A DNA stretch of 26,476 bases from a virus. This document shows positions 3,277 to 23,359 of this stretch, piece after piece. The notes under the pieces were generated by a model. It was not told where the DNA came from and did not search any database. It saw only the letters and a list, made by a program, of their open reading frames with translations. The stretch spans positions 1-26,476 of IMG/VR virus record IMGVR_UViG_3300027631_002279; one strand, written 5' to 3'. The translations under genes and the position numbers were made by a program. Numbering within the stretch: the first letter of the stretch is position 1; each line of letters begins with the position of its first letter.

Positions 3277-3277
3277 T

Positions 3278-4546: not shown

Positions 4547-4547
4547 T

Positions 4548-5018
4548 ATGAATTACAATCCTATATATCGTAAATCAATTGATGATAAAAATGCAATAAG
4601 TGCCAATAAAATGGCTAGAGGTAAGTTTTATTTAATAAAAGAATACGTTTATGTGGATGGTATAAAAGGTAGTTTTACAGAAACAACTGCTCCTATAATA
4701 TTTACACTATTTGTATCGCAACCAAAGGATATAATACATTGTGTAAAAGTATCAAATGTTAATCCAAACTTAATTAAGAAATTCTTCGGTAAATTCGTAA
4801 ATGAAGATACTGAAAAACTACAAATGAGAGGTGGAGCAAAAAAAATATATGAGCAAATTGTTTCAAAAGTTCCTATAATTACAAATGATGCATATAGGAC
4901 TTACAAAATAAGTGGAGTAACTAAAGTTATAGAGTTAACTATGGATGTAAATGAGATAACTCCAAAGAATATGAATGTTACAGGCATAGATAAAAAGTCA
5001 CAATTAAAAGGTAGATAA
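4548..5018 (+). CDS. Hypothetical phage protein
   Basis: 156 residues, family not recognised. It reads as a compact beta-rich protein: 'ARGKFYLIKEYVYVDG', 'APIIFTLFVSQPKDIIHCVKVSNVNPNLIKKFFGKF', and near the C-terminus 'YRTYKISGVTKVIELTMDVNEI'. The alternation of strand, 'P-I-I-F', and a following short loop into helix loosely recalls a small T4-like phage protein family whose members report on 'YDxxPL...' cores, but the match is too weak to name. It lies between two glycosyltransferases and the FILWLKGF protein, and is probably co-transcribed. It has no signal peptide or membrane segment. A structural or sugar-related role is undecided. Confidence 0.6.
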   Translation: MNYNPIYRKSIDDKNAISANKMARGKFYLIKEYVYVDGIKGSFTETTAPIIFTLFVSQPKDIIHCVKVSNVNPNLIKKFFGKFVNEDTEKLQMRGGAKKIYEQIVSKVPIITNDAYRTYKISGVTKVIELTMDVNEITPKNMNVTGIDKKSQLKGR

Positions 5019-5020
5019 AA

Positions 5021-5446
5021 ATGACATCAAAAGAATTCATCCTTTGGTTAAAAGGATTTACAGAGGGAGTACATGAGTTTAATATTACTCCAAAACAATG
5101 GGATTTATTAAAAGATAAATTGGTAGAGGTTAAGGATGAAGAACCAATAGGATTTCCATTCGGAGTTCCGAATACCGCACCAATACAAACATTACCATTT
5201 ATCCAACCATACAACCCATATACAATAAATTGTGGTAGTGGTTCATCTGGAACAATAACAACAACACCGGGTGGTGGTTCTATAACATACGCAACACCAC
5301 AATTTATAACATCAACTACAACAGGAACTGCATATGGGTATCCGAGTGGTTCTAATTGGAGTTATACAAATAGTACATACAATCCACCATATACAACGGG
5401 CGGAGAAGCAGATGATACTAAGAAAGAACCTCATAACGAAGATTAA
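5021..5446 (+). CDS. Phage protein with FILWLKGF N-terminal module and Gly/Ser/Thr tail
   Basis: 141 residues in two parts. Residues 1-40 ('MTSKEFILWLKGF', then 'ITPKQWDLLKDKLVEV') form a short helical module seen at the start of many phage proteins across unrelated tailed phages, with no known function. Residues 60-130 are low-complexity, rich in Thr, Ser, Gly, Pro, Tyr and Asn. That could be a flexible linker or a heavily O-glycosylated segment, which is interesting because the gene sits in a glycosyltransferase cluster. The C-terminus is acidic. Its stop overlaps the epimerase start (TAATG), so the two are coupled. Confidence 0.7.
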   Translation: MTSKEFILWLKGFTEGVHEFNITPKQWDLLKDKLVEVKDEEPIGFPFGVPNTAPIQTLPFIQPYNPYTINCGSGSSGTITTTPGGGSITYATPQFITSTTTGTAYGYPSGSNWSYTNSTYNPPYTTGGEADDTKKEPHNED

Positions 5447-6309
5447 TGAAAAAAGTATTAGTTACAGGAGGAGCAGGATTTGTAGGTTATGCACTTACAT
5501 TAGAATTGCTTAAAAGAGGATATCAAGTCGATGTAATTGATAATCTTTCAATTGGAGCTGAAGCAAAAATATCACCATTTGTAAATTTTTTAGGTGGAGA
5601 TATTAGAAGTATGGATAATATCAAAAATACCCCATATGATTATATATTTCATTTGGCAGCATTAAGTAGAATACAACCATCGTTTCAAAATCCAACATTA
5701 ACATTTTCAGTAAATGTAGATGGTACAAAGCAAGTTACTGAATATGCGTATCATAGCAAATCTAAATTAATATACGCAGGTTCATCATCCCGCCATCATA
5801 ATCCAATGTTATCGCCATACGCACTAACAAAGCATATGGGAGAAGAGTGGATAAAGATGTTTAAGGGGGTATATGGTTTGAATGCAGAGATAGCCCGTTT
5901 TTATAATGTATATGGTCCAGGTGAGTTAGTAGATAGTAATATGGCAGCTGTTATTGGTATATGGAGAAATGCTATATCAAAGGAAGAACCAATCCTAATA
6001 CATGGTGATGGTGAACAAAGAAGAGATTTTACACATATAGATGATATTGTTGATGGGTTAATTAGAATTGCTGAAACTGATGAAAAGCACGAAGATGCTT
6101 GGGAATTAGGAACAGGTTGTAATTACTCATTAAATGAATTGGCTGATATGTTTGGTTACTCAAATATAAAATATGTAGATGATGTAAAAGGTAATTACCG
6201 AAAAACATTAAGATTAAATAATGATGCGGTTGAACGTTTAAATTGGAAACCGACAGATAAATTAAAAAGTTATATAAATGAAATTAAGTTACGCAATAAC
6301 GGCTTGTAA
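5446..6309 (+). CDS. NAD-dependent nucleotide-sugar epimerase/dehydratase (extended SDR)
   Basis: 287 residues, typical of a short UDP-glucose 4-epimerase-like SDR. The NAD-binding G8-x2-G11-x2-G14 is in 'TGGAGFVG'. D31 at the end of beta-2 ('VDVIDN') favours NAD. The catalytic triad is S113/S114 ('AGSSS'), Y125 and K129 ('SPYALTKHMGEEW'). 'ARFYNVYGPG' and 'FTHIDDIVDGLI' are the usual substrate-side motifs of UDP/GDP/TDP-sugar epimerases. It would interconvert or dehydrate an activated sugar for the nearby transferases. The exact sugar cannot be assigned. It overlaps the next gene by 32 bases. Confidence 0.88.
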   Translation: MKKVLVTGGAGFVGYALTLELLKRGYQVDVIDNLSIGAEAKISPFVNFLGGDIRSMDNIKNTPYDYIFHLAALSRIQPSFQNPTLTFSVNVDGTKQVTEYAYHSKSKLIYAGSSSRHHNPMLSPYALTKHMGEEWIKMFKGVYGLNAEIARFYNVYGPGELVDSNMAAVIGIWRNAISKEEPILIHGDGEQRRDFTHIDDIVDGLIRIAETDEKHEDAWELGTGCNYSLNELADMFGYSNIKYVDDVKGNYRKTLRLNNDAVERLNWKPTDKLKSYINEIKLRNNGL

Positions 6310-6904
6310 TGAAGTCGAAGAAACAATTAGATTGGTAAATCAATTATTAAACTACAAAGAAGAAAATTCCGAAATAGTAGTTCTATTAGATACACCAAAA
6401 GCACCTACCGAATTAGTAGAGTATTTAGAGTTGCAAGCAAACGCAGACCACATTACACTTATCGAATCGGAATTTAATAATGATTTTGCACAATGGAAAA
6501 ACTTTTTAAACTCACAATGTAATGGTGAGTGGATATTTCAGTTAGATGCAGATGAATATCTTACACCGGATTTGATTGTAAATTTAGAAGCACTATTAGA
6601 TGCCAATGCTGATAAAGATATGATTATCGTTCCACGTATCAATACAGTCGAAGGTTTAACTCAATCCCACATTGAAAAGTGGGGATGGAATGTAAATGAA
6701 AAAGGTTGGGTAAACTTTCCAGATGTTCAGACTCGTATTTATAAAAATAAGCCAGAGCAGATTGGATGGAATGGAAAGGTACACGAAAGAATTGGTGGGT
6801 ATGAGAATTATACAAATTTTCCAATAGAAGAATTATATTGTATTATCCATCCAAAAGCAATCGAAAGACAAGAAAAGCAAAATAACTACTACGATACTTT
6901 ATAA
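6278..6904 (+). CDS. GT2-family glycosyltransferase, WaaE-like
   Basis: 208 residues with a GT-A start ('MKLSYAITACNEVEETIRLV') and the metal-binding D90-A-D92 in 'FQLDADEYLTP'. 'GKVHERIGG' near 168 is characteristic of the LPS core beta-1,4-glucosyltransferase WaaE/KdtX group. No membrane anchor is present, unlike many polysaccharide GT2 enzymes. The start at 6278 lies within the 3' end of the epimerase gene (32-base overlap) and is the only start that keeps the complete first beta strand. An inverting transferase acting on a lipid-A-core-like or oligosaccharide acceptor is plausible from the family. Confidence 0.82.
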   Translation: MKLSYAITACNEVEETIRLVNQLLNYKEENSEIVVLLDTPKAPTELVEYLELQANADHITLIESEFNNDFAQWKNFLNSQCNGEWIFQLDADEYLTPDLIVNLEALLDANADKDMIIVPRINTVEGLTQSHIEKWGWNVNEKGWVNFPDVQTRIYKNKPEQIGWNGKVHERIGGYENYTNFPIEELYCIIHPKAIERQEKQNNYYDTL

Positions 6905-7539
6905 TGGTACACATTTATTATCACATATATGCAATAGAAGGCGTTGATGCGATAGTTAAAGAACAATTGGAATTGATAAAAGCCAATTTTGATTTTCCAT
7001 ATAAATTAAATGTAGGTATTTCAATTGCAAATGATAATATATCACTTATCAATATACTTAGTTTATTTAATATATCAGATTTAAAAGATGTAAGAGCTAG
7101 AGCAAATGAGTTTGTTACATTAGATTTAATAGAAAAAGATAAGGAAAAATTTGGAGATTCCGATTATATTTTGTATCTTCATACGAAAGGTGCTTCTAAA
7201 CAAAATTCAGAAAATGTAATAACTTGGAGACATCTTATGAATTACTTTAACGTTGAAAAGTGTAAGAATGTTTTTAAAATTTTTGAAAAAACTTCATATA
7301 ACACATATGGAGTATTATTGGGAACAGCTGGAAAATGGAAATTATATTCTGGTAATTTTTGGTGGGCAAAAGCATCTTATTTGAAAACAATAGAAATGGA
7401 TGGAGTAAAACGAAATAGATTTAATGCCGAAGTGGATTATATCCAAAACGGAATAGATTGGAAACCATATTCATCATATAACAGAGAAGGTGAAAACCAT
7501 TATCTAATTAATTTTGACGAAACAAATTATAGACAATGA
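6904..7539 (+). CDS. Putative glycosyltransferase with LHTKG and SGNFWWA motifs
   Basis: 211 residues. The pattern 'YILYLHTKGAS' (88-98), 'TWRHLMNYF' (107-115), 'GVLLGTAGKWKLYSGNFWWAKASYL' (136-160) is that of a small GT-A-like family found in LPS, capsule and phage glycan loci, where 'HTKG' occupies the DxD-like place and 'GNFWWA' marks the acceptor side. No classical DxD is visible. The donor is unknown. It starts on the last base of the previous stop (TAATG) and shares ATGA with the next gene. Confidence 0.7.
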   Translation: MVHIYYHIYAIEGVDAIVKEQLELIKANFDFPYKLNVGISIANDNISLINILSLFNISDLKDVRARANEFVTLDLIEKDKEKFGDSDYILYLHTKGASKQNSENVITWRHLMNYFNVEKCKNVFKIFEKTSYNTYGVLLGTAGKWKLYSGNFWWAKASYLKTIEMDGVKRNRFNAEVDYIQNGIDWKPYSSYNREGENHYLINFDETNYRQ

Positions 7540-8393
7540 AAATAACATTCATATACGATTATAAAAATGGAGAGCAATGGTCTACGCCATTAGCACTCTT
7601 AAATGAATTCAAAGAAAGAGGGTGGGAAACTCAAATAATCAAAACAAACAATGCCGACTTAAAGAATTGGGTAGATTCCAAACCACAAACTGATATTGTA
7701 TTGTTTATGGATTGGGGTAGATTTGATTCACAATATCTTAATAAAGATTTAGTTCCTGCATTTTGGATACAAGAGAGTGGAGATGACCCTCAAAACTTTG
7801 AAAGAAATTCACCAAAAGCAAATAGATTCCACTTCACAATAACACCTGATAAACAATGTGCGGAAGCATATATAAAAATGGGTATAAATTCTGAATGGAT
7901 AAACCACTTTGCAGATACAGCAGTTCAATTTCCTATGAATTCTGAATCAAAATATGTAGCAGTTACAACTAGAGGAATTGGTAATTCTACATTTTTAGAT
8001 TACTTAACCGAATGGGCTGAAGGTTCAGTTGGAAATAGGAATGGACTGAATGCACAACAGCATACTGAATTTTTGAATAGTGGATTAATGGTTATTCAAA
8101 ATAGTAGATGGAAAGAAATTACTCGTAGAATCTTTGAAGGAATGGCTTGTGGAAAATTAGTTATAACGGATAGATTATCAAATGAAACTGGGTTATCAGA
8201 AATGTTTATCGATGGGGAAGATATCATATATTACGATGAGATGTTTGATTGCATAGAGAAGATGAATTACTACAATGAAAATGAAGAGGAGAGAGAAAGA
8301 ATTGCACATAATGGAATGATGAAAGTATTACACAACTACACTCAAATTCAAGTTGTAGATAAACTAATAACAGCATATGAAAGAAGTAGGTAG
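7536..8393 (+). CDS. GT-B glycosyltransferase, CgeB/GT1-like
   Basis: 285 residues. The N-terminal half has Rossmann features ('MKITFIYDYKNGEQWS', 'DIVLFMDWGRFDS', 'PAFWIQESGDDPQNFERNS'). The C-terminal half has 'SRWKEITRRIFEGMACGKLVITDRL' near 190-213, in which E201 within 'RRIFEGMACG' corresponds to the donor-binding segment of CgeB-like and GT4-like enzymes. A short linker ('STFLDYLTEWAEGSVGN') joins the domains. At 285 residues it is shorter than a typical GT-B enzyme (350 or more), so the donor domain may be compact. It overlaps its upstream neighbour by 4 bases and the acetyltransferase by 17. Confidence 0.72.
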   Translation: MKITFIYDYKNGEQWSTPLALLNEFKERGWETQIIKTNNADLKNWVDSKPQTDIVLFMDWGRFDSQYLNKDLVPAFWIQESGDDPQNFERNSPKANRFHFTITPDKQCAEAYIKMGINSEWINHFADTAVQFPMNSESKYVAVTTRGIGNSTFLDYLTEWAEGSVGNRNGLNAQQHTEFLNSGLMVIQNSRWKEITRRIFEGMACGKLVITDRLSNETGLSEMFIDGEDIIYYDEMFDCIEKMNYYNENEEERERIAHNGMMKVLHNYTQIQVVDKLITAYERSR

Positions 8394-8895
8394 TTATACA
8401 TACGGACATGACAATATAAAAATTGTACATGGAAATGAAGGAAAAACTTTACGAATAGGTAAGTTTTGTTCTATTGCAGAAAATATAATTGTATTTTTAG
8501 GAGCAAACCATAGAGTAGATTGGTTTTCAACATATCCGTTTGGACATATACATGATACTACATTTCCAAAGGTAAAAAAAGACCACGGCCACCCATCATC
8601 AAAAGGTGATGTCATAATAGGAAATGATGTTTGGTTAGGTACGGGATGCACAATAATGAGTGGTGTAACAATAGGTGATGGTGTAGTGGTTGCAGCATGT
8701 AGTGTTGTTACAAAAAATGTTCCACCATATACAATAGTAGCTGGTAATCCTGCAAAACAAATTCGTAAAAGGTTTGATGATGTAGTTATTAACAAATTAT
8801 TAGAATTAAAATGGTGGGATAAAACTGAATCAGAAATAAATGAAATATCAGACATACTTTGCTCAAATGATATCGAAAAATTAAACAATATATAA
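8377..8895 (+). CDS. Hexapeptide-repeat acetyltransferase (CatB/WcaF-like)
   Basis: 172 residues with a left-handed beta-helix: 'LRIGKFCSIAENIIVFLGANH' near 25-45, then 'GDVIIGNDVWLGTGCTIMSGVTIGDGVVVAACSVVTKNVPPYTIVAGNPAKQIRKRF'. Catalytic His is H45 in 'GANHRVDWFSTYPF', as in xenobiotic acetyltransferases and colanic-acid acetyltransferases. These enzymes form trimers and O- or N-acetylate sugars using acetyl-CoA. In this island it most likely acetylates a glycan or a nucleotide-sugar precursor. The start at 8377 lies within the end of the upstream gene, and the stop TAA overlaps the methyltransferase start. Confidence 0.85.
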   Translation: MKEVGSYTYGHDNIKIVHGNEGKTLRIGKFCSIAENIIVFLGANHRVDWFSTYPFGHIHDTTFPKVKKDHGHPSSKGDVIIGNDVWLGTGCTIMSGVTIGDGVVVAACSVVTKNVPPYTIVAGNPAKQIRKRFDDVVINKLLELKWWDKTESEINEISDILCSNDIEKLNNI

Positions 8896-9488
8896 TGAAA
8901 AGAACAGATATAATTAATGCATTTATACAAAAGTATGGATATAAGAGTTATTTAGAAGTTGGAACACAAGACCCAACATCTAATTTTGATTTAATAAATG
9001 CAGAATGTAAAGTATCGGTAGACCCATTTCCAAGAGGAGAAGTAACATTTATTGGAACATCCGATGAATACTTTGAATCAATATCAGAAGATGTGAAGTA
9101 TGATATTATTTTTATAGATGGATTACATCACGATGACCAAGTTTTAAAAGATATTGAAAACTCATTTAATCATTTATCAGAAAATGGAACTATTATTTGT
9201 CACGATTGTTTACCAACAACAGAAGATATGCAAGCTAGAGATGACCACGGTAGAGAATGGACTGGAGATGTATGGAAAGCAATTGCCGAATTAAGAGTTG
9301 AAAGGATTGATTTAGATATTAAAGTTGTAAATACTGATTATGGGTGTGGTATTATTCGTAGAGGAACAAATATACCATATGAAACATCTGCTAATTATAA
9401 ATCGTATTATCATTATAATAATAATAAATGGAATATGTTAAATATTATATCAACCGAACAATTTATACAATGGATAAATATAGCGTAA
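8895..9488 (+). CDS. Class I SAM-dependent methyltransferase
   Basis: 197 residues. Motif I is 'YLEVGTQDPTSN' (19-30), with acidic D43 ('SVDPFP') for the SAM ribose. 'YDIIFIDGLHHDDQVLKDI' (69-87) and 'NGTIICHDCLP' (97-107) match the Methyltransf_24-like family often found in sugar and cephalosporin-hydroxylase-like gene clusters. The 'IDG-x-H' and 'HDC' patterns suggest a possible metal-assisted O-methyltransferase. Its place between an acetyltransferase and GT2 enzymes argues for methylation of a sugar, perhaps a capping step, rather than DNA. DNA methylation motifs (DPPY/NPPY) are absent. Confidence 0.82.
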   Translation: MKRTDIINAFIQKYGYKSYLEVGTQDPTSNFDLINAECKVSVDPFPRGEVTFIGTSDEYFESISEDVKYDIIFIDGLHHDDQVLKDIENSFNHLSENGTIICHDCLPTTEDMQARDDHGREWTGDVWKAIAELRVERIDLDIKVVNTDYGCGIIRRGTNIPYETSANYKSYYHYNNNKWNMLNIISTEQFIQWINIA

Positions 9489-10117
9489 TTATACCAACAC
9501 TTTGGAAATCAAATAGAATTGGAAAGTTATTATTTAGTTTGATAGAATGTGAATTTGTTGATGAAATTATATTAATAGATAATGCCGGAAAGTTCTTTGA
9601 ATATTTCGAAGGATTGAATAAAGTAAAATTAGTTCAGGTAGAAGAAAACATTTATGTAAATCCTGCTTGGAATTTAGGAGTTAAACTTGCTAAAAATAAT
9701 TGTATAGCAATATTAAATGATGATATAAATTTTAATCCAAATATATTTGAAGTGATAACCGAAGATATATTAAATCAGTTTGGTATTATTGGTATGGGTG
9801 AGGGTAATTATAAGTCATTAAACATAGAAGGTGACCCAATTTTAGAAGTATGGCAACCTGGCGTAAATGATTGGGGATGGGGATGCTTTATTATGTTGAA
9901 TAAAAAAGATTGGATTGATATCCCAGATAATATAAAAATATGGTATGGAGATAATATTATAAAAGATGTAAACCCAACACCAAAAGCATGTTTAAGAAAT
10001 TTTAGAGTGGATACTGAAATGAGTACAACCTCTGATGAAAAAGAATGGGATGAAATAAAAAAAGAAGATTATAATAACTTTATAAATTATTTAAGAAATG
10101 GACAAGTTACCAATTAG
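9470..10117 (+). CDS. GT2-like glycosyltransferase
   Basis: 215 residues from the ATG at 9470. This start is preferred over 9428 because it begins exactly at the first GT-A strand ('MDKYSVIIPTLWKSNRIGKLL') and overlaps the methyltransferase by 19 bases instead of 61. 'VDEIILIDNAG' is the nucleotide-binding strand; 'NPAWNLGVKLAKNNCIAILNDDINFNP' carries the DxD-equivalent N83-D84-D85. 'GWGCFIMLNKKDW' near 140-150 forms the acceptor-side region. There are no membrane segments. Donor and acceptor are unknown. Confidence 0.78.
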   Translation: MDKYSVIIPTLWKSNRIGKLLFSLIECEFVDEIILIDNAGKFFEYFEGLNKVKLVQVEENIYVNPAWNLGVKLAKNNCIAILNDDINFNPNIFEVITEDILNQFGIIGMGEGNYKSLNIEGDPILEVWQPGVNDWGWGCFIMLNKKDWIDIPDNIKIWYGDNIIKDVNPTPKACLRNFRVDTEMSTTSDEKEWDEIKKEDYNNFINYLRNGQVTN

Positions 10118-10838
10118 TATAGGTATATTAGCTTGGAATAGTGGACAAGTATTAGTAGATACTTTAACTACATATCATCAAAATGGATTATTTGATATGG
10201 TGAACGATACCACTATCTTATTTCAAGAGTTTTCAGAGCAAGATTACCAAATAGCAAAACATTTTGGATTAGATTTTATAGGGTTAACTAAGAATATTGG
10301 AATAGGGCAAGCATTTATAAAATTAACTGAAAATGCCGAATCGGATTATGTTTTAGTATTGGAACATGATTGGAATTTAATTGAAGATAAGCAAACTACA
10401 TACGATACATTAAAAAGAAGCTATCAAGCAATCGAAGTGGGAATGGATGTAGTTAGATTAAGACATAGAAAGAATCCAGGAAATCCACATTTTTCATTTA
10501 GATATATTGGTAAAGAACTTACTTACTATGATGATGAGATTGGAGCAACATCGCCTCACCTTTTAGATTCAGTTCATTGGTGTGAGCCTGATATTGAATT
10601 TGGTGATTATATAAAAAAATCAGAAGATATGTTTTGGACTACTTCTCGATATGGTAATTGGACAAACAATCCTTGCTTATACAAAAAACAATTTTATTTA
10701 GATACCGTTAAACAATTCGCCGGCGATGGTATTGCATTAGAAGGTAATATTGGAAAATGGTGGGTTCAGCAAGAATATAAGGTTGGACATGGTGAAGGAT
10801 TATTCAAACATAATGATTGGCAAAAATACGGAAGATAA
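10098..10838 (+). CDS. GT2-like glycosyltransferase
   Basis: 246 residues. GT-A start 'PISIGILAWNSGQVLVDTL'; 'FIGLTKNIGIGQAFIKLTENAESDYVLVLEHDWNL' places an E89-H-D91 metal motif where GT2 enzymes have DxD. The rest includes 'VVRLRHRKNPGNP' and 'NNPCLYKKQFY', consistent with an acceptor domain. This E-x-D version is seen in phage and marine bacterial transferases of unassigned specificity. It starts within the end of the preceding gene (20-base overlap) and shares TAATG with the next. Confidence 0.74.
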   Translation: MDKLPISIGILAWNSGQVLVDTLTTYHQNGLFDMVNDTTILFQEFSEQDYQIAKHFGLDFIGLTKNIGIGQAFIKLTENAESDYVLVLEHDWNLIEDKQTTYDTLKRSYQAIEVGMDVVRLRHRKNPGNPHFSFRYIGKELTYYDDEIGATSPHLLDSVHWCEPDIEFGDYIKKSEDMFWTTSRYGNWTNNPCLYKKQFYLDTVKQFAGDGIALEGNIGKWWVQQEYKVGHGEGLFKHNDWQKYGR

Positions 10839-11629
10839 TGAAATACACAATAGTAGGATGTATAACCAAATACGGAATAGAACAAATTAAACCATTTGTT
10901 GAATCAATTGAGCAAAGTGGATTCAATGGTGAAAAATTAATGTTAGTATATGATATATCCAAAGAAACAATTGAATATTTGGATAGTAAGGGTTGGTTAA
11001 TAACACAATCAGAACCACAGCAACATATTATCTTACAAAGATTTAGAGATATGTATGCACTTTTACAATCATATGAAACAGATGTAATTATTTGGGTAGA
11101 TGTTAAAGATATCATATTTCAAAAAGACCCAACCGAATGGTTAAACACTAATATGAATAAAGATATTCTTGCTTTTAGTGAATCATTGAAATTTGGAGAT
11201 GAAGCTTGGGCAAGATTAAATGCAGGTACATCATTTCCTATGGAATGGGAATGGTTACAAAATGAAGAAATATATTGTGCCGGCACTATTGTTGGTAAGA
11301 AAGAAGCAATTAGGGATTTATTTATTGATATTTATAGATGGAGTTTAACTACTTCTAATCCAGAACAATTAGCAGACCAAGCTGCATATAATATTATTAT
11401 ACATCTAAATCAATTCAAAGATAAAGTTCAATTTGTAAAACAACAAGAAGGATTTGCAGCTCAATTACATTTGAAATTAAAGAAAGGTGATACACTACCT
11501 TATACTGAAATATTACCAAAAATAGATGGTAGTGAAGTTAAAAATGAAAAGGATGAATTATATACATTAGTACATCAATACGATAGAAACGAAGAACTTA
11601 AACAATTAATAGAAAACAAATATAAATGA
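10838..11629 (+). CDS. Putative GT-A glycosyltransferase with D-x-x-D motif
   Basis: 263 residues from ATG 10838, which overlaps the previous stop (TAATG); the in-frame ATG at 10817 would add an extension lying entirely in the neighbour. The core is 'YTIVGCITKYGIEQIKPFVESIEQSG', then 'VIIWVDVKDIIFQKDPTEWL' (83-102). In this family, D88-x-x-D91 followed by F-Q-x-D-P serves as the metal site, as in capsule-associated 'DvrDvvFQ.dP' transferases. 'CAGTIVGKKEAIRDLF' and 'DQAAYNIIIHL' match the later helix-strand pattern. It ends with an ATGA overlap. Confidence 0.7.
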   Translation: MKYTIVGCITKYGIEQIKPFVESIEQSGFNGEKLMLVYDISKETIEYLDSKGWLITQSEPQQHIILQRFRDMYALLQSYETDVIIWVDVKDIIFQKDPTEWLNTNMNKDILAFSESLKFGDEAWARLNAGTSFPMEWEWLQNEEIYCAGTIVGKKEAIRDLFIDIYRWSLTTSNPEQLADQAAYNIIIHLNQFKDKVQFVKQQEGFAAQLHLKLKKGDTLPYTEILPKIDGSEVKNEKDELYTLVHQYDRNEELKQLIENKYK

Positions 11630-12528
11630 AAAAAATAGTTATTACATCATTTATCATGCCACATGAGTTGGATGATTTGGAAAGGGTATTAGTAGATTTA
11701 AATAAAGCATCTAAATATATTAAAGGAGAAAATTACTCATTTTATATCTCACTTTCAGTATCCGATTATCTAATAGATTGGAGTACATCTAAAGTTGATA
11801 AGCAATTTTTTATAGATAGATTCAATTCATTAAAGCCATTGACTAATTGGGCAGGTAGTTCTGTAATGCAAATTAGAGAAGAAGTTATGGGAGCATTTCA
11901 ATGTAAAAGATATGCACATAAAGAAATTACCGATGCAACTCATTTTATTTGGTTAGATACAGATATTTGTTTTGATGATAAAATATTGTATTATATGGAA
12001 GCAAGTATTGATAGATTAAATGAAACTGATAAACATATTGATAAATATTTTATTACACCAGAAATTGTTAAATATTGGGACACAACTTGGGATTGTTTAG
12101 TTAATGTAAATTATTTAGATAAACCATTAGATTATTGCAAAACAAATAATCCATTTTCTGAAAGTGGTGAGGTTGGAGATGTAGAATTAGAAACTGTACT
12201 TAATAATGTTGTAGGACAACCTAAAACTAAATTTGGTGCAGGGTGGTTTACACTTTTATCAAAACCTCTATTAGATAGAATACCTTTACCTGAATCAATG
12301 GGGGCATATGGGCCAGATGATACATTTTTAATGTGGGGAATTGAAAAATTAAACCAAAAAGGTGAAAATATATATCAATTTAAATTGAAAAATTATATTG
12401 TATGCGAGAATTATATGTATAGAGACAGAAAGCATTATGATTCTTTAATAAGCAGAATTGATAGAAAAGAAGAATTTAAACAAAAATCACATATAGTATT
12501 TCAGGAAGAAATAAATAATCTATTGTAA
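11626..12528 (+). CDS. Putative GT-A glycosyltransferase (last gene of the sugar island)
   Basis: 300 residues. The metal-binding motif is D111-T-D113 in 'THFIWLDTDICFDDKILYYM'. Earlier strands are 'KKIVITSFIMPHE' and 'YSFYISLSVSDYLIDW'. Later 'TKFGAGWFTLLSKPLLDRIPLPESMGAYGPDDTFLMWGIEKL' contains a G-P-D-D-T-F segment, typical of the second acidic site of GT-A enzymes, and a basic C-terminus follows. Only this gene and the two GT4 genes are over 300 residues or near it in the island, suggesting it may act on a larger acceptor. The stop at 12528 is followed by a promoter-like motif at 12541, ending the operon. Confidence 0.72.
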   Translation: MKKIVITSFIMPHELDDLERVLVDLNKASKYIKGENYSFYISLSVSDYLIDWSTSKVDKQFFIDRFNSLKPLTNWAGSSVMQIREEVMGAFQCKRYAHKEITDATHFIWLDTDICFDDKILYYMEASIDRLNETDKHIDKYFITPEIVKYWDTTWDCLVNVNYLDKPLDYCKTNNPFSESGEVGDVELETVLNNVVGQPKTKFGAGWFTLLSKPLLDRIPLPESMGAYGPDDTFLMWGIEKLNQKGENIYQFKLKNYIVCENYMYRDRKHYDSLISRIDRKEEFKQKSHIVFQEEINNLL

Positions 12529-13475: not shown

Positions 13476-14289
13476 GATTCTGCAAGAATGTATTATTGTA
13501 TCCAAAGAGGTTAATGATAAGTTCATTCTAGCTAAGAATAGAGATAGAGCTTATAATCCATCTTTAGAAATTATTCACACTATCATTGATGGTGTAGAAG
13601 TTGCATATTTGCATGATATAACTACCGATTGGAGTGAAGGTTTAAATGAAAACGGAATCGGTGTTGTAAATTCAGCACTATTGGTTGGACATGATGAAGC
13701 CGAACATAAGATTGTAAAGAAGGGTGGTAAGCCAGGACCTGATGGTGATAAGATGAGAAACATTATCAAACAACCTACCCTAGTAGATGCAGTGAGAGCT
13801 ACACTATCATATAAGGGCAAGAGTGGATTAGCTTTGAAAGGACATACATTTGTAGCATCTCCAAAACATATGATTAGTATTGAAACTACATCAAAGCATA
13901 AGCCTGATGTTAAAATTCAAAATTCCGAATCACCTGTTGTTCGTACAAATCACGGACATATGTTCACCGATGCCGGATATACAAGCGGTGAGAAATATCT
14001 AAGTTCAAAATTGAGGAAAATATCAGCAGAAAAATCAGTTGATAAAGTAGAAGATTGGAAAGAAATAGCATTGGCAATGAGAAAAGAATTTTTTCCAAAA
14101 AGACCTATGTTAAATATGAAAAGAGATACTGAAGAAATGTCTACATCATCTCAAACTGTAATGAATTTGACTGATAAAATATTAGAAATTACATACTTTA
14201 AAGATAAGGTTAAAGAGTTTAAAGGAATTAAAACCGACTTACCTAAAGGATATACTCCCAAAATTAAAATAGAAATAAAAGAAATTTAA
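13468..14289 (+). CDS. Ntn-hydrolase-like protein (C45/choloylglycine hydrolase-like)
   Basis: 273 residues. The start 'MAKILQECIIVSKEVNDKFILAKNRDRAYNP' has the layout of Cys-dependent Ntn hydrolases and TANGO2-like proteins: a candidate nucleophile C8, a strand, then 'AKNRDR' in place of the usual N-x-D/N-R-D motif. 'EGLNENGIGVVNSAL' (58-72) is the next core strand pair and 'VVRTNHGHMF' (158-167) the expected R-T-N-H segment. Enzymes of this superfamily cleave or transfer amides (penicillin V, bile salts, acyl-homoserine lactones). The real substrate is unknown. C8 would have to become N-terminal; the preceding residues end in L-Q-E. Phage homologues exist in my recollection, without assigned roles. 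Confidence 0.65.
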   Translation: MAKILQECIIVSKEVNDKFILAKNRDRAYNPSLEIIHTIIDGVEVAYLHDITTDWSEGLNENGIGVVNSALLVGHDEAEHKIVKKGGKPGPDGDKMRNIIKQPTLVDAVRATLSYKGKSGLALKGHTFVASPKHMISIETTSKHKPDVKIQNSESPVVRTNHGHMFTDAGYTSGEKYLSSKLRKISAEKSVDKVEDWKEIALAMRKEFFPKRPMLNMKRDTEEMSTSSQTVMNLTDKILEITYFKDKVKEFKGIKTDLPKGYTPKIKIEIKEI

Positions 14290-15122
14290 TGGTTAACAAC
14301 TTTACATCGGGAATGTGGAATGGTATGAAGGTTGAGTTTGGAAAAGTATATTCAAACTTAAACGCTTTTGCATTTAATCCATTGAATGAAGCTGATAGTA
14401 AGAAGTTAAGAGTATTTGATTTTGATGATACATTAGTTCAGACAAACTCTAATATATACATTAAACATAAAGATGGGAAAGAATCAAAACTAACACCTGG
14501 AGAATACGCAGTCTATGAGCCAAAGGATAGTGATAAGTTTGATTTTTCTGATTTTGAAAAAGTAAAGCAACCACAAGAGATTAAGGGTGTTACTAGATTA
14601 TTAAAAAATATAGTAAGAGTTGGTGGTTCGGAAATCGTTATATTAACAGCTAGAGCGGCATATAAGCCAATTAAGAAGTATTTATCAGATATCGGATTAA
14701 AAGATATATTTGTAGTAGCATTAGCAGATGCAAATCCACAAAAAAAAGCTGATTGGATAGAAAATAAAATAAAAGATGGTGTAAATGATGTGTTCTTTAT
14801 AGATGATTCTCATAAGAATGTTTCAGCAGTAAAGGCATTATCTAAAAAATACCCAAATATATCATTGAAGGTTAAGCATGTTCAACATACAACACCGGCA
14901 TTGCCTAAAAATGATACAACACCAAAGCAGGATAAAAACGAACCAACTAAATCTGCTAAGGTAAAGGGAAATGATATTAAATTAAAATCACTACTTCCAA
15001 AAGATTTAGAAAAAACAATTAAAAACCCTGAAACGGGTAGAATGATTAAAATGAAATCTGCATTAGGATATGATGAGAAATCAAAAGTATTTCAAGCAGC
15101 TCAACGTACTTTAAAAAAATAA
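14289..15122 (+). CDS. HAD-like phosphatase, probably virion-targeted
   Basis: 277 residues. The HAD motif I is D44-F-D46-D-T in 'LRVFDFDDTLVQT', motif II 'VILTARAAY' near 119 and the late acidic motif 'VFFIDDSHKN' near 165, so a magnesium-dependent phosphohydrolase is likely. In T4-like marine phages similar HAD proteins begin with a short capsid-targeting leader just before 'RVFDFDDTL'. Here residues 32-35 are L-N-E-A, a candidate prohead-protease site. The C-terminus contains 'IKLKSLLPKD' (230-239) and 'KNPETGRMIKMKSALGYD' (from 245), a K-N-P-x-T-G-R type motif. It is too unlike GmhB to be called the missing heptose phosphatase. Confidence 0.78.
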   Translation: MVNNFTSGMWNGMKVEFGKVYSNLNAFAFNPLNEADSKKLRVFDFDDTLVQTNSNIYIKHKDGKESKLTPGEYAVYEPKDSDKFDFSDFEKVKQPQEIKGVTRLLKNIVRVGGSEIVILTARAAYKPIKKYLSDIGLKDIFVVALADANPQKKADWIENKIKDGVNDVFFIDDSHKNVSAVKALSKKYPNISLKVKHVQHTTPALPKNDTTPKQDKNEPTKSAKVKGNDIKLKSLLPKDLEKTIKNPETGRMIKMKSALGYDEKSKVFQAAQRTLKK

Positions 15123-17240: not shown

Positions 17241-17645
17241 ATGTCATACGGAGATAAAGTAATAGACCATTTCAATAACCCACGAAATGTAGGTACTTTG
17301 GATAAAAGTAAATCCAATGTAGGTACGGGATTGGTGGGAGCACCCGAATGTGGTGATGTAATGAGACTACAAATAGAAGTTAATGATAATATCATCACCG
17401 ATGCAAAATTCAAAACCTTTGGATGTGGTTCGGCAATAGCAGCATCATCCTTAGCAACTGAATGGTTGAAGGGAATGTCAATAGATGATGCAATTAAACT
17501 GGATAATATGGAATTGGTAGAGGAACTATCATTGCCACCTGTTAAGATACATTGTTCAGTATTGGCCGAAGATGCGATAAAAGAAGCAATAAAAGATTAT
17601 AGACAAAAGCAAGGATTAGAGGAATTAATTCTTGAAGGAATCTAA
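17241..17645 (+). CDS. iscU: Fe-S cluster assembly scaffold IscU/NifU-like
   Basis: 134 residues, a full-length single-domain IscU. The complete ligand set is visible: C37 and D39 in 'GAPECGDVM', C62 in 'FGCGSAIAASS', H104-C105 in 'PPVKIHCSVLAEDAI'. These correspond to C35, D37, C61, H103, C104 of bacterial IscU. 'LPPVKIHC' is the segment recognised by the HscA chaperone in bacteria (LPPVK). It would accept Fe and sulfur and pass on a 2Fe-2S or 4Fe-4S cluster. No cysteine desulfurase or HscA/HscB is in the window, so host partners must be used. Start at 17241 follows an A/T-rich leader. Confidence 0.92.
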   Translation: MSYGDKVIDHFNNPRNVGTLDKSKSNVGTGLVGAPECGDVMRLQIEVNDNIITDAKFKTFGCGSAIAASSLATEWLKGMSIDDAIKLDNMELVEELSLPPVKIHCSVLAEDAIKEAIKDYRQKQGLEELILEGI

Positions 17646-17664
17646 AAACAAAAAAATATAAAAT

Positions 17665-17973
17665 ATGAGCTACATTATTGGTAAGTCTTGTGTTGATTGT
17701 ATGGATACTGCGTGTGCAAATGTATGCCCGGTAGATTGTATTCACGGACCCATTAACATAGAAGGCTCGGGTGGCGAAATTGAAAGAGATGGTAGAGCAG
17801 CATTTCCCGGTGGGCAAATGTATATCAATCCTGATGTTTGTATTAATTGTGGAGCATGTGAGCCTGAATGTCCTGTTAATGCAATTTACGAAGATGAGGA
17901 TTTAGCAATAAAAGCAGGTGAAGAAGAATATGTACATAAGAATTATGAATTCTTTGGTCTAAAATACGCATAA
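17665..17973 (+). CDS. Dicluster ferredoxin
   Basis: 102 residues with two cysteine clusters. First: C9-x2-C12-x4-C17-x3-C21-P plus C25, an FdxA/7Fe-like arrangement ('CVDCMDTACANVCPVDC'). Second: canonical C59-x2-C62-x2-C65-x3-C69-P ('CINCGACEPECP'). Two Fe-S clusters (4Fe-4S and a 3Fe/4Fe) are expected. It could give electrons for cluster assembly or for a phage or host redox enzyme. It lies between IscU and IscA, with its stop overlapping the IscA start (TAATG). The leader is A-rich ('aaaaaaatataaaat'). The acidic C-terminus ends FFGLKYA. Confidence 0.9.
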   Translation: MSYIIGKSCVDCMDTACANVCPVDCIHGPINIEGSGGEIERDGRAAFPGGQMYINPDVCINCGACEPECPVNAIYEDEDLAIKAGEEEYVHKNYEFFGLKYA

Positions 17974-18296
17974 TGGTAACAGTATCAGAAACAGCAGCTA
18001 AAAAATTAACATCACTCATTGAAGAAAGTGGATTTAAAACTCCCTACGTCAGAGTATCCGTTAAAGGTGGTGGATGTAGTGGGTTAGCGTATGACCTTTC
18101 ATTTGATACTGACCAACAAACGGGAGATACTCTTGCAGAAGATAAAGGAGTAAAAATTTTAGTAGATATGAAATCCTTATTATACCTATTTGGTACTGAA
18201 TTACAATTTTCAGATGGGTTGAATGGTAAGGGTTTTGAATTTATTAACCCCAACGCTAGCCGAACTTGCGGATGCGGGGAAAGTTTCGCAGTATGA
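17973..18296 (+). CDS. iscA: A-type Fe-S carrier IscA/HesB
   Basis: 107 residues, typical length. Three conserved cysteines are present at exactly the positions of E. coli IscA: C35 in 'GGGCSGLAYDLSF', and C99-G-C101 in 'NPNASRTCGCGESF'. It is an A-type carrier that receives and delivers Fe-S clusters to target enzymes. HesB/IscA-like genes occur in several marine T4-like phages. It overlaps ferredoxin at the start and gmhA at the end (ATGA at 18293-18296), indicating one operon. Confidence 0.93.
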   Translation: MVTVSETAAKKLTSLIEESGFKTPYVRVSVKGGGCSGLAYDLSFDTDQQTGDTLAEDKGVKILVDMKSLLYLFGTELQFSDGLNGKGFEFINPNASRTCGCGESFAV

Positions 18297-20983: not shown

Positions 20984-20996
20984 AATTTTTAATATT

Positions 20997-21004
20997 TATA
21001 TTTA
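20997..21004 (+). promoter_or_regulatory. TATATTTA promoter-like motif (TTTATATTTA)
   Basis: TTTATATTTA (core 20997-21004) lies 24 bases upstream of the ATG at 21029 in the only gap of this area. No TTTGG sits 19 bases upstream. The leader is a run of A4-5C repeats, a typical Bacteroidota-style translation leader. Confidence 0.5.
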
Positions 21005-21028: not shown

Positions 21029-21331
21029 ATGAGCACATTCGTATTAGTATTAGTTACATTGGCAGTAGCTGGTGGAATTACTTACTTCCTAATGAAAAAA
21101 GGAAAAATTGCAGATGCAAACAAAAACAACATTCCTGATGTAATAGATGAGAAAGTTGAAAAAGTTAAAGCAGTTGTTAAAGAAACTAAAACCCGTGTAA
21201 AACGAGTTGTAGAAGAAACAAAAGATGTAGTTGCCGCTGTTAAAGAAGTAGGTAAACAAGCATCTCATGTAACTAAAGCAACTAAAAGTTCGGAAGCTAG
21301 ACCAGGTAGAAAGCCTGCAGCTAAAAAGTAA
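21029..21331 (+). CDS. Membrane protein with Ca-loop-like motif and basic tail
   Basis: 100 residues. A single N-terminal membrane helix (about 3-22, 'TFVLVLVTLAVAGGITYFLM'), then 'KKGKIADANKNNIPDVIDEK', in which D-x-N-x-N-x-I-x-D looks like the calcium loop of dockerin/thrombospondin type 3 repeats. Next is a helical region 'VKAVVKETKTRVKRVVEETKDVVAAV' and a Lys/Ala/Pro-rich tail 'SSEARPGRKPAAKK' reminiscent of histone H1. The topology suggests an inner-membrane anchor with the helical tail in the cytoplasm. I recognise similar small proteins in Bacteroidota phages without function. Confidence 0.62.
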   Translation: MSTFVLVLVTLAVAGGITYFLMKKGKIADANKNNIPDVIDEKVEKVKAVVKETKTRVKRVVEETKDVVAAVKEVGKQASHVTKATKSSEARPGRKPAAKK

Positions 21332-21367: not shown

Positions 21368-21496
21368 ATGGCAAAAGCAAAATCTGCGAATACCGCACAA
21401 AAACTTTCTTTTGGAAAAAAAAGTACTGGAAAAGCTAAAAAGAATTTCGGTCCTAAAGAACAAAAACCAAAAAGATATAAGGGACAAGGTAGATAA
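21368..21496 (+). CDS. Small highly basic protein
   Basis: A 42-residue gene, MAKAKSANTAQKLSFGKKSTG onward, ending with KPKRYKGQGR. Fourteen of 42 residues are Lys or Arg and there are few hydrophobic residues, so it is likely to bind DNA or RNA. The end 'RYKGQGR' resembles basic small proteins of T4-like marine phages. Its stop is 1 base from the start of the ParB-fold gene, so it is coupled to it. Function, whether in genome packaging or translation, is inference. Confidence 0.62.
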   Translation: MAKAKSANTAQKLSFGKKSTGKAKKNFGPKEQKPKRYKGQGR

Positions 21497-21497
21497 A

Positions 21498-22484
21498 ATG
21501 ATAAAACTCAAATCATTATTAGCCGAAGAAGATGTTGTAAAAAACAAAAAGACAGGTAATGTTTATGTGGTTCAATCATTTGACCCGAATAAACATGACA
21601 AACCATCTCCTGCCGAAATTGAAAAAACTAAGCAAGCTAATAATGGAGTACTTCCAAAAAGTGAACCTCAATCAAAACAAATTCCACAAAACACTGCACC
21701 AACCAAATCAGGTCAAAAATTAGGTGGTAGTGATTTAAAAACATCTGCTGAAAAAGGTAGTGGAATGCCAAAGTTGAAAGATTTGATGCCAGGAATGGAT
21801 ACATCAGCAAAATCTCTTTCACAAATAACTCCAATAGAAAGACAAAAAATATCTACTGTTGTAGATAAATTAGCTGAATTAGGTAGGCAAGCAAAGGAAA
21901 AGGGAGAACAAGCACCTAACTTTAATTTATGTCAGGTTTCAATTCCAGGTACTAATTTATATTGTGATGGTAATAAAGGAATTGAAAGAGGGGATATGCC
22001 ACAATTCAAAGGAACACCTCAACCAGGTTCACCTGCTGATAAACTTCCAAAAGATGAAAGTGGAGAAGCCGATACCGAAGAATTTTTCAAAGAAATGTTG
22101 AATAAACAAGGTATCAAAGTTTCAGAACCAACAGCAGTTCCACCAGACCGTTTAAAAGCAACACAAAGTGAGCTTGTAGGGGTTAAAGTTGCAGGAATGA
22201 GTAAAGTATTAGATGATAAAAATCATCCGGCATACGGAAAAATTACCGCACCTATATATGTATCCAATGATGGGTACGTTTTAGATGGACATCATAGATG
22301 GGCAGCAGTTGTTGCACATAATGCAGCAAATCCAAAAAATCAAATTCCAATGAACGTTAGGGTTATTGATGAACCAATCGAACCATTGGTAAAACGTTCA
22401 AACGCATTCGCAGAAAAAATGGGTATTAGAGCTAAAAAAGCAGATACTGGAGCAGCTGGTGGACCATCCCCAATTACTAAATAA
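21498..22484 (+). CDS. ParB-fold protein with capsid-targeting-like N-terminus
   Basis: 328 residues from ATG 21498. This start, chosen over 21411, sits 1 base after the small basic gene's stop and exposes the leader 'MIKLKSLLAEED'. The first 10 residues resemble T4 capsid-targeting sequences: short, basic/hydrophobic, ending in L-A-E (prohead protease site LxE). A Pro/Lys-rich disordered region follows to about residue 110. The C-terminal part contains 'KATQSELVGVKVAGM', 'APIYVSNDGYVLDGHHRWAAVVAHN' with DGHHRWAA at 263-270, the ParB/sulfiredoxin fold nucleotide-binding box. Such phage proteins are candidate nucleases or NTPases delivered with DNA. The predicted internal head location is inference. 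Confidence 0.72.
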   Translation: MIKLKSLLAEEDVVKNKKTGNVYVVQSFDPNKHDKPSPAEIEKTKQANNGVLPKSEPQSKQIPQNTAPTKSGQKLGGSDLKTSAEKGSGMPKLKDLMPGMDTSAKSLSQITPIERQKISTVVDKLAELGRQAKEKGEQAPNFNLCQVSIPGTNLYCDGNKGIERGDMPQFKGTPQPGSPADKLPKDESGEADTEEFFKEMLNKQGIKVSEPTAVPPDRLKATQSELVGVKVAGMSKVLDDKNHPAYGKITAPIYVSNDGYVLDGHHRWAAVVAHNAANPKNQIPMNVRVIDEPIEPLVKRSNAFAEKMGIRAKKADTGAAGGPSPITK

Positions 22485-22487
22485 TTT

Positions 22488-22495
22488 TATATTTA
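22488..22495 (+). promoter_or_regulatory. TTTTATATTTAT motif before the endolysin gene
   Basis: TATATTTA (22488-22495), embedded in TTTTATATTTAT, is 18 bases upstream of the endolysin ATG. The position right before the lysis gene is what supports a late-type role for this motif class. No -33 box is seen. Confidence 0.5.
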
Positions 22496-22513
22496 TAACA
22501 AAACATAATTACT

Positions 22514-23359
22514 ATGCTATTAAAAAGAGGTGACAATAACGAAAGTGTCAAACAATTACAAACAAAGTTAGGTTTAGAAGCAATTGGTAACTACGGCCCT
22601 AAAACCGAAGATGCAGTAAAAGCATTTCAAACTAAAAATGGTTTAACTCCGGATGGTATTGTAGGAAATACTACTTGGAATAAAATTATGGGTATTACGG
22701 AAGCAGAAGCTCCGATAGCATCTGTTGTAGTATCTACACCAATAGCATCGGTAGGTGGATTGAAATTAGATAAACTTAAAGGACATATTCCTGATGCAGT
22801 AATCGCAATGATTCCTGATACGGCAGCTAAGTTCGAAATAAATACTCCATTAAGATTGGCGCATTTCTTAGCACAATGTGGACATGAGAGTGGTGGATTT
22901 AAAGCAACGCAAGAAAACCTAAACTATTCAGCAAAAGGATTGGCTGGTATCTTTAAGAAATATTTCCCAACTGAAGCAGCAGCAGCTCCATATGCTAGAC
23001 AACCACAAAAGATTGCATCCAAAGTGTATGGTGGTAGAATGGGTAACGGACCTGAATCAACTGGCGAAGGCTACAAATTTAGAGGTAGAGGATATATCCA
23101 ATTGACAGGTAAAGAAAACTATACTGCATTTGGTAAATCAATCGGAGAAGATATGGTAGCTAACCCAGATATGGTGGCATCAACTTACGCTTTATTATCA
23201 GCAGCTTGGTTTTTCTCTAAAAACGGATTACATAAGATAGCAGATGAAGGAGCTAGTGATTTAGTTGTAACAAAGATTACTAAAAGAGTAAACGGAGGAA
23301 CAATCGGATTACCGGACAGAATTAAACATTTCAAAGAATATTATCACTTATTAGCATAA
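22514..23359 (+). CDS. Endolysin: PG-binding domain plus GH19 muramidase/chitinase-like domain
   Basis: 281 residues. Residues about 5-60 are a PG_binding_1 domain ('NNESVKQLQTKLGL', 'GPKTEDAVKAFQTKNGLTPDGIVGNTTWNKIMG'). After a short linker, 'LAHFLAQCGHESGGFKATQENLNYSA' starts the GH19 lysozyme-like domain, with catalytic E125 and a second Glu E134. 'KFRGRGYIQLTGKENYTAFGK' and 'AAWFFSKNGLH' are the usual GH19 motifs in phage endolysins. Cuts the cell wall glycan backbone at lysis. It has no signal peptide, so it needs a holin. The gene ends in a terminator at 23364. Confidence 0.92.
   Translation: MLLKRGDNNESVKQLQTKLGLEAIGNYGPKTEDAVKAFQTKNGLTPDGIVGNTTWNKIMGITEAEAPIASVVVSTPIASVGGLKLDKLKGHIPDAVIAMIPDTAAKFEINTPLRLAHFLAQCGHESGGFKATQENLNYSAKGLAGIFKKYFPTEAAAAPYARQPQKIASKVYGGRMGNGPESTGEGYKFRGRGYIQLTGKENYTAFGKSIGEDMVANPDMVASTYALLSAAWFFSKNGLHKIADEGASDLVVTKITKRVNGGTIGLPDRIKHFKEYYHLLA

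What the first reader, a model, noticed from the sequence alone, without database searches (positions are those of the whole stretch)
21498..22484. ParB-fold protein with a T4-type capsid-targeting leader
The N-terminus MIKLKSLLAEE has the features of T4 internal-protein leaders: about ten residues, basic and hydrophobic, ending in LxE where the prohead protease cuts. A ParB/sulfiredoxin-fold domain (DGHHRWAA) sits at the C-terminus, with a disordered linker between. This would be a candidate effector packaged in the head and injected with DNA, perhaps acting on host defence or nucleotides.
Basis: partly seen in the sequence, partly recalled or inferred. Interest (0 to 1): 0.62.

Follow-up and report, generated by a model that had tools for sequence, protein, structure and literature searches.

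The report
Head-packaged ParB-fold phage effector candidate
This gene of an uncultured T4-like phage, whose nearest cultured relative infects Flavobacterium, very probably makes a protein that is loaded into the virus head by a short removable tag and delivered into the bacterium with the DNA; the same tag sits on several unrelated proteins of related phages, so it marks their hidden injected cargo.

Summary
The ORF starts MIKLKSLLAE|E and ends in a ParB/sulfiredoxin-fold module. About 200-kb relatives encode a gp21-type S77 protease and gp23. The leader matches T4 IPIII (MKTYQEFIAE|A) position for position; residues 4, 7 and 10 are the conserved ones. It recurs on unrelated proteins of the same genomes (11 N-termini against 0 of 3,190 internal Met), including a gene beside gp21 and a zeta-type kinase. 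Where the leader is replaced, [LI]xE is kept before the same mature sequence. The operon follows a motif that also precedes the structural genes. Relatives of the C-terminal module are virion proteins by published mass spectrometry (LIMEstone1) and occur inside giant DarB-like virion proteins. Corrections: the region after the leader holds a folded mini-domain, not only a linker; a second leader-like motif (KLKDLMP) sits internally; the active-site motif (DGHHRWA) resembles the serine kinase SerK, so an NTP-binding or kinase-like role in the host is my preferred but weakly supported guess. This is a new variant of a known kind: a T4-type internal protein with a polyvalent-protein-type cargo.

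The parts
20993..21000 (+). TATTTATA, core of a putative late-promoter motif upstream of the operon 21029-21331 / 21368-21496 / target
   Evidence: Motif enriched upstream of genes; in G002, 17 of 22 occurrences lie in the structural-gene regions, Fisher p = 8e-7; also ahead of the same operon in G002, G004 and G005
21029..21331 (+). 100-aa protein with an N-terminal hydrophobic segment and a charged helix; first gene of the operon
   Evidence: ORF; weak PHROG hits to spanin/holin families; syntenic in G004 and G005
21368..21496 (+). 42-aa basic protein ending ...KRYKGQGR, directly upstream of the target
   Evidence: Sequence; conserved upstream neighbour in G002, G004 and G005
21498..22484 (+). 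Target gene: leader + mini-domain + linker + ParB/Srx module (328 aa)
21498..21527 (+). Capsid-targeting-like leader MIKLKSLLAE; predicted prohead-protease cut after E10
   Evidence: same register as T4 IPIII/IPII MKTYQEFIAE
21528..21647 (+). N-terminal mini-domain of the mature protein (residues 11-50, EDVVKNKKTGNVYVV...)
   Evidence: Conserved, pLDDT about 80, also in a ~690-aa protein of G002/G005
21672..21764 (+). Disordered linker (residues 59-89)
   Evidence: pLDDT below 50
21771..21791 (+). Internal leader-like motif KLKDLMP (residues 92-98)
   Evidence: KLxxL[ILM]P occurs 4, 3 and 4 times in three genomes against fewer than 0.1 in shuffles, mostly in head-cluster or putative cargo proteins
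21978..22004 (+). GIERGDMPQ motif (residues 161-169), shared with distant virion homologues
   Evidence: G, R and MPQ invariant in 24 homologues
22113..22427 (+). ParB/sulfiredoxin-fold module (about residues 206-310), with TQSE (222-225) and DGHHRWA (263-269)
22490..22497 (+). Second TATTTATA promoter-like motif, before the endolysin
22514..23359 (+). Endolysin (peptidoglycan-binding + GH19), next gene downstream; in T4 ipII/ipIII adjoin lysozyme gene e
14289..15122 (+). Second cargo candidate in the window: HAD phosphatase with a conserved [LIV][NQ]E|A site (LNE34|A here) before the HAD domain and a C-terminal KLKSLLPK...KNPETGR module

Best explanation
The protein is a T4-type internal head protein. 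Made late in infection, its first ~10 residues (MIKLKSLLAE) bind the prohead core through hydrophobic positions 4, 7 and 8. The gp21-type S77 protease then cuts after Glu10 (L-A-E|E), leaving the mature protein (residues 11-328) inside the DNA-filled head, from where it enters the host with the genome. In the host, the ParB/sulfiredoxin-fold module acts early as an NTP-binding enzyme on a host target. Its active-site motif DGHHRWA is the same as in the free serine kinase SerK, so a kinase or NTPase activity is a likelier guess than a DNA-partition clamp; nuclease activity stays possible. Shown here (computationally): the leader, its sharing with unrelated proteins, the protease and gp23 in relatives, the fold, and homologues in virions (published mass spectrometry). 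Inferred: binding to the core, cleavage, ejection. Guessed: the biochemical activity. The stated confidence is for packaging through a cleavable leader; about 0.7 for an injected effector and 0.4 for a kinase-like or NTPase activity.
For: (1) The leader recurs on non-homologous proteins far above chance, including a gene lying between the protease and scaffold genes and a zeta-type kinase; codons differ, so the peptide is what is conserved. (2) Same register as T4 IPIII/IPII MKTYQEFIAE|A; in T4, residues 4 and 7 target and residues 8 and 10 govern processing (PMC9026906); the same positions are conserved here. (3) Leader replacement with the cut site kept: MNKFERKIYQLIME|N, MNKIERKLYNIINE|D, MKVLTNILKTILKE|E, MIKLKSLINKSFLLKE|D before the same VVKNKKTGNVY; the zeta-type kinase keeps [IL]xE|G in HTVC008M (MIPFILKE|G) and Melnitz (MKTFAELQE|G). 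(4) gp21 and gp23 in all five ~200-kb relatives, with QLLDE|A in gp23. (5) Late-promoter-like motif upstream of the operon. (6) Homologous module found in virions: LIMEstone1 17.31 kDa, 5 peptides, 35.57% = 53/149 residues, matching the 149-aa homologue; inside giant DarB-like virion proteins of F116 and DC1. (7) ParB/Srx/SerK fold and DGHHRWA identity with SerK.
Against: No virion of this clade was examined; cleavage and ejection are inferred. The protease and gp23 lie outside the 26-kb window and are seen only in relatives. [LI]xE near an N-terminus is common (about 10% of proteins), so the motif alone proves nothing. Some relatives (L132, L137, L138, L140) have another N-terminus without a leader. 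The virion homologues in LIMEstone1 and CBA120 lack this leader, so they support the module's location, not this route. SerK similarity is confined to a short motif (E about 0.7; NCBIfam E = 0.004), and structural Z-scores are modest (up to 6.7).
Confidence: 0.8

Rival explanations
1. It is packaged in the head, but as a structural or DNA-organising core component rather than as an effector acting in the host; the ParB-like module binds DNA or nucleotides inside the capsid or during ejection.
For: A leader-bearing gene also sits in the head cluster itself, so the leader marks head-core proteins in general; the family is well conserved (module about 90% identity), unlike the fast-changing T4 internal proteins.
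Against: Other carriers look like effectors (zeta-type kinase; a SAM-lyase-like neighbour); the module is fused into giant polyvalent or DarB-like proteins and is not part of the T4 head core set; fusions vary between relatives (extra C-terminal domain in L003 and L006).
Confidence: 0.2
2. It is not packaged: a late cytoplasmic or lysis-associated protein made next to the endolysin, with an amphipathic N-terminal helix that only resembles a capsid-targeting leader.
For: It sits between a spanin/holin-like gene and the endolysin; short amphipathic N-termini are common.
Against: The leader is shared with head-cluster and kinase genes elsewhere in the genome; Glu10 is invariant although residue 9 is free; leader swaps keep [LI]xE; T4 ipII/ipIII also adjoin the lysozyme gene.
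Confidence: 0.07
3. It is a classical ParB-type partition or transcription regulator, or a DNA nuclease without any packaging role.
For: ParB/Srx fold; the polyvalent-protein survey treats phage ParB domains as likely DNases (PMC5512222).
Against: Pfam detected no ParB model and no HTH or dimerisation domain; the motif is DGHHRWA rather than a canonical ParB motif; the leader is left unexplained.
Confidence: 0.04

Closest known systems
T4 internal proteins IPI, IPII, IPIII and Alt with a capsid targeting sequence (CTS)
   Same: About 10-residue N-terminal leader ending [LI]xE; hydrophobics at 4, 7, 8 and Glu at 10; longer variants as in IPI; host phage has gp21- and gp23-type genes; gene beside the endolysin
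   Different: Leader sequence is MI[KR]LK[SD]LLxE rather than MKTYQEFIAE; cargo is a ParB/Srx-fold protein unrelated to T4 internal proteins; packaging not demonstrated
Polyvalent proteins with ParB-like domains (phage P1 DdrB type; Iyer et al. 2017, PMC5512222)
   Same: ParB/Srx-superfamily domain in phage proteins that are packaged and injected; relatives of this module occur in 900-2,096-aa multidomain proteins, one with a nucleotidyltransferase
   Different: No detectable sequence similarity to P1 DdrB or DarB; stand-alone protein with a prohead-protease leader instead of an autopeptidase
Stand-alone ParB/Srx virion protein of Ackermannviridae (LIMEstone1 ORF101, CBA120 orf137)
   Same: Same module (GxxRxxMPQ, TQxE, DGxHR); confirmed in LIMEstone1 virions by mass spectrometry
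   Different: 149 aa, no leader of this type, no N-terminal mini-domain; about 30% identity
Free serine kinase SerK / SbnI
   Same: ParB/Srx fold and DGHHRWA motif
   Different: Only the motif aligns by sequence (E about 0.7); SerK's C-terminal part is absent; activity unknown

Membership tests
T4-type internal (CTS-bearing) head proteins | N-terminal propeptide of about 10-19 residues ending in a gp21-type [LI]xE site | tested here: met
   MIKLKSLLAE|E; E10 invariant; all 27 distinct short leaders in relatives carry [LI]xE before the mature sequence
T4-type internal (CTS-bearing) head proteins | Leader shared among otherwise unrelated proteins of the same phage | tested here: met
   carriers found in G002, G004, G005 and G008
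T4-type internal (CTS-bearing) head proteins | Phage encodes a gp21-type prohead protease and gp23 with a cleavable propeptide | tested here: met
   In 5 of 5 ~200-kb relatives carrying the gene; the window fragment itself does not contain this region
T4-type internal (CTS-bearing) head proteins | Present, trimmed, in mature virions and ejected into the host | not testable with these tools
   Needs virion proteomics; only a homologue of the C-terminal module has been seen in virions
ParB/sulfiredoxin fold superfamily | Core fold with the conserved Arg of the active-site motif | tested here: met
   Every chain listed by the VIA comparison is ParB, Noc, Srx, SerK, SbnI or another ParB-like protein (best Z 6.7); R267 in DGHHR invariant in 24 homologues
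DdrB-like ParB domain of polyvalent proteins | Sequence similarity to the P1 DdrB ParB domain | tested here: inconclusive
   No detectable similarity by profile search against P1 DdrB and DarB; a more distant relation is not excluded
Canonical ParB partition proteins | Pfam ParB domain with HTH and C-terminal dimerisation domains | tested here: not met
   No such Pfam hit; the protein ends shortly after the fold
SerK free serine kinase | Full-length SerK similarity above the curated cut-off | tested here: not met
   NCBIfam SerK 16.3 bits against a cut-off of 380; only DGHHRWA aligns in PDB SerK
SerK free serine kinase | Kinase activity on a small molecule or protein | not testable with these tools
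   Biochemistry needed

The most novel reading that the evidence does not exclude
T4-like phages of this group use a modular delivery code: a swappable leader (cleavable at [LI]xE), plus a related uncleaved KLxxL[LIM]P motif inside other proteins, loads a varied cargo (SerK-like ParB-fold enzyme, zeta-type kinase, SAM-lyase-like protein, HAD phosphatase, giant nucleotidyltransferase) into the head for injection, and this ParB-fold protein is a pre-early enzyme that modifies a host or defence target by nucleotide-dependent phosphorylation.
Probability: 0.3. Interest if true: 0.8.

Novelty: new variant of a known kind. Interest (0 to 1): 0.62.

Why it matters
A reliable leader lets one read the injected arsenal of an uncultured phage group directly from sequence, as signal peptides do for secretion. 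Here it already flags a candidate set: a ParB/SerK-like protein, a zeta-type kinase, small unknown proteins, and neighbours such as a SAM-lyase-like (anti-restriction type) protein. It extends T4-style internal proteins, known mostly from enteric phages, to large phages related to a Flavobacterium phage, and joins the T4 capsid-targeting mechanism to the polyvalent-protein cargo known from P1. Each prediction gives an exact neo-N-terminus that one virion proteomics run can test.

Tried and rejected
Pfam, PADLOC and NCBIfam gave no confident family for the protein; PHROG gave only an unknown family (phrog_2859). Direct profile match to P1 DdrB, DarB, DarA or Hdf: none significant. Sequence-only PDB searches with the whole protein: nothing meaningful. 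Annotated-phage search for the head-cluster leader protein: no relatives. General [LI]xE density in scaffold and core proteins is only slightly above expectation, so it was not used as evidence. The in-frame TTG start at 21411 was considered and rejected. No paper with virion proteomics of the cultured relative immuto was found in the library. Atu_ph07 virion proteomics exists, but its supplementary tables could not be read, so the kinase homologue there was not checked. The Sajous1 'ParB N-terminal domain' virion protein (11 spectra, PMC10892097) is taken as a likely homologue by annotation only.

Full report
WHAT IS THERE. The window is a 26-kb IMG/VR virus fragment. ORF 21498-22484 (328 aa) begins MIKLKSLLAEEDVVKNKKTGNVYVV and carries DGHHRWAA near its end. 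Its ATG follows closely the stop of a conserved 42-aa basic gene, and the endolysin gene comes next. Twenty relatives were fetched first, 78 loci in a second scan that partly overlap the first.

IS THE LEADER MORE THAN CHANCE? Yes. In the alignment of relatives Glu10 is invariant, Leu4 and Leu7 are 95% identical, and residue 9 is free (15%). Three ~200-kb relatives (G002, G004, G005) were read completely and their genes predicted. N-terminal 10-mers are shared between non-homologous proteins far beyond shuffles. A strict leader pattern hits 11 of 700 N-termini and 0 of 3,190 internal Met. The carriers are the target family, a gene lying between the gp21-type protease and the scaffold/gp23 genes (G002 117130, G004 195100, G005 153364), a zeta-toxin-like P-loop kinase and small unknown proteins. 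Their codons differ, so the peptide is what is conserved. In two phages (G002, G008) consecutive genes carry such leaders, next to a SAM-lyase-like gene with a YDLNE|A start.

IS IT A T4-TYPE LEADER? T4 IPIII and IPII begin MKTYQEFIAE|A and IPI MKTFKEFTSTTTPVSTITE|A. According to PMC9026906, residues 4 and 7 of the IPIII leader matter for targeting and residues 8 and 10 for processing. These are the conserved positions here. All five ~200-kb relatives carrying the gene encode the S77 prohead protease and gp23, and gp23 has a QLLDE|A site. The strongest comparative point is leader replacement: MNKFERKIYQLIME|N, MNKIERKLYNIINE|D, MKVLTNILKTILKE|E and MIKLKSLINKSFLLKE|D precede the same mature sequence, and every distinct short leader carries [LI]xE (background about 10%). 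Independently, the zeta-type kinase keeps the site with other leaders in Pelagibacter phage HTVC008M (MIPFILKE|G) and Methylophilales phage Melnitz (MKTFAELQE|G). The cultured Flavobacterium phage immuto has gp20, gp21 and gp23 and leaders of the same type. In T4 the ipII/ipIII genes adjoin the lysozyme gene, as the target adjoins the endolysin; this is only suggestive.

EXPRESSION. TATTTATA is enriched upstream of genes. In G002, 17 of 22 occurrences lie in structural-gene regions (p = 8e-7). It precedes the target operon in G002, G004, G005 and in the window at 20993. I read it as a late promoter (inference).

THE CARGO. The AlphaFold2 model of the whole protein has a low-confidence leader, a mini-domain (11-50), a disordered linker (59-89) and a folded C-terminal half. 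A model of residues 119-316 reaches pLDDT 84. Structural matches are ParB/Noc, sulfiredoxin, SerK and SbnI, best Z 6.7. By sequence, the best real PDB matches are SerK proteins through the motif DGHHRWA (weak). Invariant elements across distant phages are GxxRxxMPQ, TQ, and DGxHR. A 2025 survey found ParB-fold proteins binding CTP, ATP or GTP (PMC12704722), so NTP binding is a reasonable expectation.

WHERE RELATIVES OF THE MODULE ARE FOUND. In LIMEstone1, a 17.31-kDa virion protein was found with 5 peptides and 35.57% coverage (PMC3296691); the 149-aa homologue weighs 17.30 kDa and 53/149 = 35.57%. The paper's table numbers it ORF102 and the GenBank record ORF101, which is annotated as a confirmed structural protein. 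In F116 and DC1 the module is part of giant virion or DarB-like proteins. In other IMG/VR phages it lies in proteins of up to 2,096 aa, one with a nucleotidyltransferase. This fits the polyvalent-protein concept (PMC5512222), in which ParB domains are packaged and injected; P1 DarB has its own N-terminal packaging signal (PMC9024508).

A SECOND MOTIF. KLxxL[ILM]P, resembling the leader without the cut site, occurs inside the target (KLKDLMP, residues 92-98), in the HAD and SAM-lyase-like proteins and at the N-termini of head-cluster proteins, 4, 3 and 4 times per genome against under 0.1 by shuffling. It may be an uncleaved core-binding element; untested.

VERDICT. Packaging through a cleavable leader is the best-supported reading; ejection is likely by analogy; the biochemical role is open, with an NTP-dependent kinase-like activity my first guess. 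No virion of this clade has been examined.

Noticed in passing
G002:C1:7189-9382 and L163 (G008), both outside the window: A cassette of consecutive leader-bearing genes: SAM-lyase-like protein (PF23780), zeta-type kinase and three small unknown proteins; a likely set of injected proteins.
   Followed up: partly
window 14289-15122: HAD phosphatase with a conserved [LIV][NQ]E|A site near residue 34 and a C-terminal KLKSLLPK...KNPETGRMIKMKSALGYD module that also ends the SAM-lyase-like protein; a second cargo candidate.
   Followed up: partly
window 20993, 22490, 24047 and upstream of structural genes in G002, G004, G005: TATATTTATA motif, a candidate late promoter of this phage group.
   Followed up: partly
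G002:C1:126466, G004:C1:182017, G005:C1:162582: 1,294-1,471-aa proteins with an N-terminal nucleotidyltransferase motif (GRFQPFHxGH) and a very short leader (MNLNE|V, MNLINE|V, MNLIKE|V), reminiscent of T4 Alt's six-residue propeptide.
   Followed up: no
L003:10985-11716, L006: Some family members carry an extra C-terminal domain of about 240 aa with no Pfam match.
   Followed up: no
window 1897-12528: Long run of glycosyltransferases, sugar epimerase and related genes; downstream (17241-18296) three Fe-S cluster-type genes (scaffold-like, ferredoxin-like, IscA-like), unusual for a phage. Named from reading the translations only.
   Followed up: no
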